From Chloroflexota bacterium (lineage in GTDB: Bacteria > Chloroflexota > UBA4733), in NCBI GenBank assembly GCA_023381895.1, contig JAMCTA010000143.1, forward strand, positions 1 through 14,648: a DNA stretch of 14,648 nt, in the 5' to 3' direction. Shown piece by piece: positions 1,302-2,276 of this stretch. The notes below the pieces were generated by a model that was not told the origin of the DNA, searched no databases, and worked only from the letters and a program-made list of their open reading frames with translations. The position numbers and the translations under genes were made by a program. The first letter of the stretch is position 1; every line of letters begins with the position of its first letter.

Positions 1302-1817
1302 TTACAGGACTACTGAAGCATCGTGCGCAATACCATCCCGCACATACGTCATGTCGAGGCGCATGCCGCGTTCGGCTTGTGCCATGATCTGGAGAAGATC
1401 ATCTGCTGTGTTGACCGGCCTTCCTGTGAGACGTGTCACGATGTCTCCTGGATGCAGCCCGAGAGCGGCAGCCGGTGAGCCGGGCGTAACGCGCCCAACG
1501 TACGCTCCTGACTGCCCGGGAAGGCCCTTCGCTTTCAGGATCCTGACTGCATCAGCGACGGCAGCTCCCAGTGCCGGCCGGACCGTGCTCTCCGCAACGA
1601 TCATCTCTAGGCGACGTCGATCGAAGCCGACCACTATCTGACCTTCAATGTCGACCACTGGTACCCCCTGCTGCTGCGACTTGCGAATCATCTCATAGGC
1701 AGCAGCCTGGTCCTGCGAAACGTCCCTCTCGTCGTAGGGGATCCCCTTCTGGGAAAGCCACGCTTTCACCTGGGTGCAGAAGGGTCAAGTTGGCGTGGTA
1801 TAGACTGTTGCGTGCAT
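1302..1817 (-). CDS. Glutaredoxin-PDZ protein with in-frame TGA at the first active-site Cys (probable selenoprotein)
   Basis: The minus strand from ATG 1817 gives a 171-residue protein if the TGA at 1787-1785 is read through. The N-terminus is a glutaredoxin: MHATVYTTPT, then TGA, then PFCTQVKAW, so the active-site motif is U-P-F-C with TGA at residue 11 and Cys at 14. The thioredoxin fold continues with KGIPYDERDVSQD, the cis-proline loop GVPVVDI (P53) and GQIVVGFD. A PDZ domain fills about 99-171 (GAYVGRVTPGSPAAALGLHPGDIV). AAGGAGA at 1833-1827 lies 9 bases before ATG 1817, whereas a start at GTG 1769 would drop the active site. A SECIS-like stem-loop begins at the base after TGA. The likely role is thiol-disulfide chemistry tied to peptide binding through PDZ. 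No signal peptide is seen. A nonsense mutation in an ordinary CPFC glutaredoxin is the main alternative. Stop codon TAA 1304-1302. Confidence 0.85.
1744..1784 (-). promoter_or_regulatory. SECIS-like stem-loop immediately 3' of the in-frame UGA
   Basis: Read on the minus strand, CCCUUCUG directly after the UGA (1784-1777) pairs perfectly with CAGAAGGG (1751-1744). Inside it, GAAAGC (1767-1762) pairs perfectly with GCUUUC (1758-1753) around the three-base loop GUG (1761-1759). The arms are separated by nine unpaired bases on the 5' side and one on the 3' side. The loop starts 24 bases after the UGA and carries G first and a GU step, consistent with what I know of bacterial SECIS elements (downstream in the coding region, small apical loop with a guanine near its start). 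The fold was done by eye. Confidence 0.7.
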
Positions 1818-1910: not shown

Positions 1911-1952
1911 ATGGCGTGTGTTCCGACGGAGCTTCCAGAGGGGGTGAGCACA

Positions 1953-2276
1953 ATGCTGGTCGTCACAACAGAGCAGGTTTCCGGGCAGCGTGCTGTGGAG
2001 GTCAAGGGCCAGGTCTTTGGGGTCGTCGTCCGCAGTCGTGGTCTCGGTGGCAATGTGCTGGCGACACTGCGATCTCTCCGCGGTGGAGAGATCATCGAGT
2101 ATACCGAGCTGCTGGAGGAAACGCGCCGCAATGCCATCGATCGCATGGTGCAGAATGCAACGGCCATGGGTGCCAATGCGGTCGTGATGATGCGCTTCGA
2201 CAGCTCAGAAATCGGCCAGACGATGACGGAGATCGTAGCCTACGGCACAGCCGTCGTGCTGGCTGCAGAGAAGTAG
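1953..2276 (+). CDS. YbjQ/UPF0145 family protein
   Basis: This 107-residue protein belongs to the YbjQ (UPF0145, COG0393) family, small cytoplasmic proteins often labelled 'heavy-metal-binding domain', whose biochemical role is not settled. Family features are the N-terminal strand MLVVTTEQVSGQ, the segment RSRGLGGNVLATLRSLRGGE, the helix ETRRNAIDRMVQNATAMGANAVVMMRFDSSE and the C-terminal strand VAYGTAVVL. I chose ATG 1953 over ATG 1911 because family members begin just before the V-T-T-E strand and because AGAGGGGG (1937-1944) sits 8 bases upstream. The gene is divergent from the glutaredoxin and abuts a small membrane-protein gene with no gap, so the two are probably co-transcribed and translationally coupled. 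Confidence 0.9.
   Translation: MLVVTTEQVSGQRAVEVKGQVFGVVVRSRGLGGNVLATLRSLRGGEIIEYTELLEETRRNAIDRMVQNATAMGANAVVMMRFDSSEIGQTMTEIVAYGTAVVLAAEK

What the first reader, a model, noticed from the sequence alone, without database searches (positions are those of the whole stretch)
1302..1817. Probable selenocysteine glutaredoxin: TGA exactly at the first active-site Cys
Reading through the TGA at 1787-1785 gives TTPT-U-PFCTQVKAW, a textbook glutaredoxin start with TGA where CPFC has its catalytic Cys. Three independent features agree: the frame stays glutaredoxin-like on both sides of the TGA, an ATG with a well-spaced AAGGAGA site lies just 10 codons upstream, and a stem-loop starts right after the TGA. 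Cys-to-Sec replacement at redox-active sites is the known pattern for selenoproteins, and Sec glutaredoxins have been reported in bacteria to my knowledge. Standard gene calling would start at GTG 1769 and produce a protein without an active site.
Basis: partly seen in the sequence, partly recalled or inferred. Interest (0 to 1): 0.93.

Follow-up and report, generated by a model that had tools for sequence, protein, structure and literature searches.

The report
Selenocysteine glutaredoxin fused to PDZ domain
A gene in DNA from a Chloroflexota-like bacterium encodes a glutaredoxin joined to a PDZ domain with a UGA stop codon exactly where the catalytic cysteine belongs; the same UGA and the same kind of RNA hairpin recur in many relatives, so the cell is predicted to insert selenocysteine there, and gene callers that start after the UGA lose the active site.

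Summary
Frame 1817-1302(-) reads through one TGA (1787-1785) as MHATVYTTPT-U-PFC..., 171 residues: a glutaredoxin domain plus a PDZ domain. The nearest held genome (96% identical protein) and a second genome of its genus (66%) have TGA at the same codon. Among 400 genomes of the phylum, 40 full-length glutaredoxin-PDZ genes in 39 genomes carry TGA (31) or TGC/TGT (9) there, nothing else. A hairpin 23 nt after the TGA fits the published bacterial SECIS rule; it is in 38 of 39 distinct TGA genes and 0 of 21 Cys genes and shows paired changes. A model trained without the window's clade finds it in the window (E 1.8e-6). SelA is in both nearest genomes, but tRNA-Sec and SelB were not found in them (57-66% complete). 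tRNA-Sec is in 26 of 31 TGA genomes, including all 23 at least 90% complete. Sec and Cys interchange 7-11 times on the tree. Sec-glutaredoxins are known; I found no report of the PDZ-fused form in the papers searched. Selenium insertion is untested.

The parts
1302..1817 (-). Glutaredoxin-PDZ gene read through the TGA, 171 residues
   Evidence: Open but for one TGA; relatives at 96%, 66%, 47-53% identity
1827..1833 (-). AAGGAGA, likely ribosome-binding site, 9 nt before ATG 1817
   Evidence: Sequence; function inferred
1785..1787 (-). In-frame TGA at residue 11, predicted selenocysteine codon
   Evidence: TGA or TGC/TGT in 40 of 40 surveyed genes
1751..1770 (-). Predicted SECIS hairpin GGUGAAAGC-GUG-GCUUUCCC with loop GUG at 1761-1759
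   Evidence: held-out covariance model hit 1778-1746, E 1.8e-6
1744..1784 (-). Outer stem of the same element: 1784-1778 paired with 1750-1744
   Evidence: Combined fold -17.4 kcal/mol, best fold -17.9; outer stem not shown to be conserved
1632..1808 (-). Glutaredoxin domain, residues 4-62
   Evidence: PF00462, 69.4 bits, cut-off 22.9
1311..1568 (-). PDZ domain, residues 84-169
   Evidence: PF13180, 43.5 bits, cut-off 27
1767..1769 (-). GTG that standard ORF calling takes as start; really Val16 and part of the hairpin's 5' arm
   Evidence: equivalent truncated database entries P0039 and P0102

Best explanation
This gene encodes a glutaredoxin-PDZ protein in which the codon of the active-site cysteine is an in-frame UGA, conserved in relatives together with a hairpin behind it, and the UGA is predicted to be decoded as selenocysteine by the SelA/SelB/tRNA-Sec pathway. 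How it would work (inferred): SelB carrying Sec-tRNA binds the hairpin whose GUG loop lies 23 nt after the UGA, and the ribosome inserts Sec at residue 11, giving a U-P-F-C site in which Sec11 is the attacking selenol and Cys14 the resolving thiol. The PDZ domain would tether this redox head to the C-termini of partner proteins. Glutathione is an unlikely partner, since glutathione synthetase GshB is below cut-off in all 25 TGA genomes tested. In several relatives the gene lies beside rubrerythrin-family genes, desulfoferrodoxin or flavin disulfide reductases, so a part in peroxide and disulfide defence is the likeliest job. Shown: the UGA and its conservation, the hairpin and its paired changes, SelA in the nearest genomes. 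Inferred: Sec insertion, chemistry, donor and partners.
For: TGA at the same codon in 31 of 40 full-length glutaredoxin-PDZ genes of the 400-genome survey, Cys codons in the other 9. The leader before the TGA evolves as coding sequence. Hairpin in 38 of 39 distinct TGA genes and 0 of 21 Cys genes; Leu codon CTT 37 of 39 against 1 of 21. Covariation score reached by 0 of 500 shuffles. Held-out model hits the window at E 1.8e-6. The hairpin meets the published bacterial rule. SelA over cut-off in G001 and G002; G003 of the same family has SelA, SelB, SelD and Fdh. tRNA-Sec in 26 of 31 TGA genomes, 23 of 23 at least 90% complete. TGA is an ordinary stop in 6 of 13 ORFs of the window.
Against: SelB, SelD and tRNA-Sec were not found in G001 and G002, nor tRNA-Sec in G003; incompleteness (66, 57, 81%) is an assumption. 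The window's own genome is not held. The window's helix alone is unremarkable: 15% of random synonymous codings pair as well, and the fold z-score is -1.11. One search used only the 31 genes picked for at least 7 of 8 pairs, so its percentage paired is biased, and two of its measures were not decisive (59 and 153 of 500 shuffles). Two Cys genes (L086, L077) score within the range of weak TGA genes. No experiment shows selenium in the protein.
Confidence: 0.95

Rival explanations
1. The TGA is a mutation or sequencing error in a Cys glutaredoxin gene, i.e. a recent pseudogene or assembly artefact.
For: One base separates TGA from TGC/TGT; the assemblies nearest to it are metagenome bins.
Against: The same TGA in 39 distinct genes across many families. 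Window against L072: 15 synonymous and 6 non-synonymous codon differences and no other lesion. The hairpin goes with the TGA.
Confidence: 0.02
2. Translation starts after the TGA (GTG 1769) and the product is a PDZ protein with a broken redox domain; the part before the TGA is a short leader or relic.
For: Standard ORF calling does this, and two database proteins are written so (P0039, P0102).
Against: The 10 leading codons keep the glutaredoxin start with 7 synonymous and 1 non-synonymous changes between the window and L073. Y6, C11 and C14 are among the invariant columns of 39 aligned relatives. The GTG lies within the hairpin.
Confidence: 0.02
3. UGA is read as another residue, through a changed genetic code or leaky suppression, without selenium.
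For: tRNA-Sec and SelB were not found in the two nearest, incomplete genomes.
Against: TGA ends 6 of 13 ORFs of the window. SelA is present. The only other codons seen at the site are Cys codons. tRNA-Sec is in all 23 TGA genomes at least 90% complete.
Confidence: 0.01

Closest known systems
Sec-glutaredoxin (Grx, PF00462, UxxC), listed for Geobacter sulfurreducens, Alkaliphilus metalliredigenes and Moorella thermoacetica; Clostridium oremlandii (sp. OhILAs) known from reference titles
   Same: Glutaredoxin fold and Sec at the first position of a UxxC site (PMC13188914, PMC1794560, passages)
   Different: Described as small proteins; here a PDZ domain is fused, and GshB is below cut-off in 25 of 25 TGA genomes searched
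NCBIfam NF041212, Uxx-star family glutaredoxin-like (seleno)protein
   Same: All nine members of alignment A1 match it, the window at 59.3 bits; NCBI gives this name to P0093, a Cys glutaredoxin-PDZ protein of a Chloroflexota bacterium
   Different: The window falls below its cut-off of 66; the model covers only the glutaredoxin domain (70 positions)
NCBIfam NF041199, Trx7/PDZ domain-containing (seleno)protein
   Same: Also a thioredoxin-type fold joined to PDZ in a selenoprotein
   Different: CxxU motif and a model of 390 positions; the window matches only the PDZ part, 32.7 bits against a cut-off of 300
NCBIfam TIGR02196, glutaredoxin-like protein, YruB family
   Same: Best NCBIfam match of the window's glutaredoxin domain (85.2 bits)
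   Different: Just below its cut-off of 88.55

Membership tests
Bacterial selenoprotein (UGA-Sec) | In-frame UGA aligned with Cys of homologues and conserved | tested here: met
   31 TGA, 9 Cys of 40
Bacterial selenoprotein (UGA-Sec) | SECIS-type hairpin after the UGA (3-9 nt loop, G in its first two positions, 16-37 nt spacing, at most -7.5 kcal/mol) | tested here: met
   Loop GUG, 23 nt, hairpin -8.8 kcal/mol; rule from PMC13188914 section 5
Bacterial selenoprotein (UGA-Sec) | SelA in the genome | tested here: met
   In the nearest genomes G001 and G002; own genome not held
Bacterial selenoprotein (UGA-Sec) | SelB, SelD and tRNA-Sec in the genome | tested here: inconclusive
   Not over cut-off in G001, G002; SelB and SelD in G003 but no tRNA-Sec there
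Bacterial selenoprotein (UGA-Sec) | Selenium in the protein | not testable with these tools
   Needs 75Se or mass spectrometry
Glutaredoxin (PF00462) | Domain score over Pfam's cut-off and U/CxxC motif | tested here: met
   69.4 against 22.9 bits; U-P-F-C
Glutaredoxin (PF00462) | Glutathione as cofactor | tested here: inconclusive
   GshB over cut-off in 0 of 25 TGA genomes; GshA, GshF and uptake not tested
NCBIfam NF041212 Uxx_star | Score over cut-off 66 | tested here: not met
   59.3 bits, scanned with C for Sec
NCBIfam NF041199 Trx7/PDZ selenoprotein | Score over cut-off 300 and CxxU | tested here: not met
   32.7 bits, PDZ part only

The most novel reading that the evidence does not exclude
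A family of client-tethered selenoredoxins spread over Chloroflexota that works without glutathione: the PDZ domain brings a Sec-Cys redox head to the C-termini of rubrerythrin-type peroxide reducers and their flavin reductases, and the gene is a natural record of repeated Sec/Cys exchange in which the SECIS helix decays when Cys takes over.
Probability: 0.25. Interest if true: 0.68.

Novelty: new variant of a known kind. Interest (0 to 1): 0.5.

Why it matters
Gene callers can cut the active site off this protein: two such truncated entries are among the 120 relatives listed, one from Dehalogenimonas sp. WBC-2. Two papers that treat selenocysteine in Dehalogenimonas name formate dehydrogenase and, in one, selenophosphate synthase; the word glutaredoxin does not occur in their main texts (PMC4918011, PMC13390414, passages and word counts). 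The family also offers sister genes that differ only in Sec or Cys state (L092/L086, L078/L077, L100/L094), in which gain and loss of selenocysteine and of its hairpin could be tested directly.

Tried and rejected
Single-sequence folding after the TGA was not significant (z -1.11); the signal came from comparing 19 TGA with 15 Cys genes (mean z -1.68 against -0.46, p 3.5e-4; raw energies do not differ, p 0.66). Rfam gave nothing over gathering scores in the window and 6 sub-threshold, unrelated hits around the TGA. tRNA-Sec near selA or selD of G001-G003: none in four loci; 20 loci of the looser search are ordinary tRNAs. On held-out genes the covariance model hit the site in 14 of 15 TGA loci (L100 missed), but also in Cys loci L086 (17.4 bits), L077 (16.3), L075 (12.3), L089 (10.1) and L170 (9.4), against 14.7 for the weakest TGA hit. 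By the looser measure of 6 of 7 pairs, Cys genes L075 and L098 equal the TGA gene L186. One search holds only genes preselected for at least 7 of 8 pairs. The contrast of fused genes (15 TGA of 30) with standalone ones (0 TGA of 50) is not used, because one scan pattern contained Cys, and a standalone gene with TGA does exist (L190). Fold and sequence matches in the PDB show the halves apart: glutaredoxins and Deg-type PDZ by sequence, Deg/HtrA proteins in the 50 rows shown by fold.

Counting: related genes are treated as independent. In one search minus-strand loci were read in the wrong orientation, and one search used too strict a motif and found almost nothing; replace them, with four genes (L091, L166, L179, L187) placed by hand, and L190 (standalone) left out. 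Of the 120 listed database proteins, 117 show Cys at the site, 2 are truncated, and 1 that my pattern read as G was not looked into (P0017 counted as Cys by eye). The tree's bootstrap had not fully settled.

Full report
What is in the sequence. On the minus strand, ATG 1817 opens a frame that meets TGA at 1787-1785 and then runs to TAA at 1304-1302. Read through, it gives 171 residues beginning MHATVYTTPTUPFCTQVKAW. AAGGAGA at 1833-1827 lies 9 nt before the ATG. Pfam finds glutaredoxin at residues 4-62 (69.4 bits, cut-off 22.9) and PDZ at 84-169 (43.5 bits, cut-off 27) in the window, and both in all nine members of alignment A1. AlphaFold on 39 aligned sequences gives mean pLDDT 93 and pTM 0.59, so the halves are well predicted and their mutual placement is open.

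Is the TGA real? The window's own assembly is not held; the nearest is G001. Its contig length equals that of JAMCRV010000020.1, a Chloroflexi bacterium bin. G001 (96% identical protein) and G002 of the same genus (66%) carry the TGA at the same codon, as do five more of the 61 genomes (47-53%). A survey of 400 genomes of the phylum gave, at E 1e-30, matches in 54 genomes, of which 39 hold 40 full-length glutaredoxin-PDZ genes. Each of the 40 was read: TGA in 31, TGC/TGT in 9, no other codon. Between the window and L073 the ten codons before the TGA differ by 7 synonymous and 1 non-synonymous change, while the 60 nt before the ATG are 25% identical without gaps, so the leader evolves as coding sequence.

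The hairpin. In TGA genes, nucleotides 16 to 34 after the TGA fold as a stem of the type GYGAAAG/CUUUCRC with GUU or GUG at the tip. Counting two registers one base apart, 38 of 39 TGA genes have it (31 with at least 7 of 8 pairs, 7 with 7 of 7; L186 has 6 of 7) and 0 of 21 Cys genes do; two Cys genes reach 6 of 7. The leucine codon in the 3' arm is CTT in 37 of 39 TGA genes and 1 of 21 Cys genes. Against random synonymous codings, TGA genes pair more than expected (6.82 against 4.76 of 8; 15 of 39 genes at p below 0.01) and Cys genes do not (3.81 against 3.86; 0 of 21); the window alone is at p 0.15. On the 31 genes chosen for at least 7 of 8 pairs (30 distinct), 24 cells change on both sides against 7.4 in shuffles and the covariation score is reached by 0 of 500 shuffles; two coarser measures are not decisive (59 and 153 of 500). 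In the window the helix is GGUGAAAGC-GUG-GCUUUCCC with one unpaired U; its tip pair C-G stands where many relatives have A-U, with Ala-Trp for Glu-Phe in the protein. The hairpin alone has -8.8 kcal/mol and together with an outer stem -17.4, near the best fold at -17.9. It meets the published bacterial rule: 3-9 nt loop, G in its first two positions, 16-37 nt from the UGA, at most -7.5 kcal/mol (PMC13188914 section 5, read). A covariance model from 23 TGA genes outside the window's clade places its best hit in the window at 1778-1746 (E 1.8e-6; the next is E 0.73). Part of that score is shared coding sequence.

The machinery. SelA is over cut-off in G001 and G002 (529 and 547 bits) and in 8 of 9 genomes tested; G029 lacks it. 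SelB over cut-off is in 45 of 61 genomes and in 4 of the 7 TGA genomes among them, not in G001, G002 or G029. SelD over cut-off is in 6 of 9, not in G001, G002 or G020. G003, same family, has SelA, SelB, SelD with an in-frame TGA and a formate dehydrogenase with an in-frame TGA, but no glutaredoxin-PDZ match at E 1e-20. tRNA-Sec at E 1e-10 is in 295 of 400 genomes: in 26 of the 31 TGA genomes, the other five being G001, G002, G121, G129 and G233 at 57-89% completeness, and in all 23 that are at least 90% complete (completeness). Of the 9 genomes with a Cys gene, 8 have it; G302 does not. ARAGORN calls tRNA-SeC with anticodon TCA in all 12 loci kept. Against this, none was found in G001-G003 with looser filters. 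TGA is an ordinary stop in 6 of the 13 window ORFs checked (several ORF names there are my own reading).

Evolution. On a tree of the 60 proteins, with the Sec residue masked, Sec and Cys need 11 changes, at least 7 on well-supported branches; the window, L072 and L073 form a Sec-only group (100/99). Sister pairs differ in state (L092/L086 and L100/L094 well supported, L078/L077 at 98/77). The two Cys genes that score best with the SECIS model are two of these sisters, L086 and L077, as recent Sec-to-Cys changes would leave them (inference).

Function. All 60 genes keep U/C-x-x-C. GshB is over cut-off in 0 of 25 TGA genomes searched of the 31, so glutathione is a doubtful partner; other routes to glutathione were not tested. 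Rubrerythrin-like neighbours recur in 9 of 60 loci, 5 Sec and 4 Cys, many loci having little flank. In L079 the order is CoA-disulfide reductase (over the NF007123 cut-off), two ferredoxin-oxidoreductase subunits, glutaredoxin-PDZ, two rubrerythrin-family genes. L085 has a rubrerythrin, a desulfoferrodoxin and a flavin reductase. The window's own neighbours are a zinc-ribbon protein, a YbjQ-type protein, a fused MFS/spermidine synthase and MurNAc-6-phosphate etherase, mostly shared with L072 and L073, and say little. A part in peroxide or disulfide defence is therefore inferred from relatives only.

What is known. Sec-glutaredoxin (UxxC) is an accepted family (PMC13188914 and PMC1794560, passages). 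NCBIfam has a Uxx-star glutaredoxin-like (seleno)protein model whose name NCBI gives to P0093, a Cys glutaredoxin-PDZ protein of Chloroflexota; the window scores 59.3 against its cut-off of 66. A Trx7/PDZ selenoprotein with CxxU is listed in both reviews (passages) and is a different protein. A glutaredoxin-PDZ selenoprotein does not appear in the passages I read, and the listings showed no paper on one by title or abstract start; most subscription papers are not held, so it may be in print elsewhere or in NCBI annotation. Of 120 listed database relatives, 117 carry Cys, 2 are cut after the TGA (P0039; P0102 of Dehalogenimonas sp. WBC-2), 1 was not resolved.

Verdict. It is a predicted selenoprotein of a known redox kind in a fused form that I found undescribed, with strong comparative evidence and no experiment.

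Noticed in passing
L190 (G013:C454:69049-69276): A second, standalone glutaredoxin in G013 with an in-frame TGA at the first redox position (...SGUMFC...).
   Followed up: no
L187 and L180 (G288): G288 has two glutaredoxin-PDZ copies: one with TGA (L180) and a Cys paralogue with an in-frame TAG in the linker between the domains (L187).
   Followed up: partly
L064-L069 (SelD genes of G015, G029, G039, G013, G003, G030): SelD over cut-off carries one in-frame TGA in 6 of 6 such genomes, so SelD itself looks like a selenoprotein there.
   Followed up: no
Family f7: g8 genomes G009, G021, G048 against g25 genomes G030, G039, G074, G090, G106, G186, G249, G263: The g25 genomes have tRNA-Sec at E 1e-10 and the TGA gene; the three small g8 genomes have neither, a possible joint loss.
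   Followed up: no
window 1911-2276 and 837-1193: Genes flanking the finding encode a YbjQ-type putative metal-binding protein and a treble-clef zinc-ribbon protein.
   Followed up: partly
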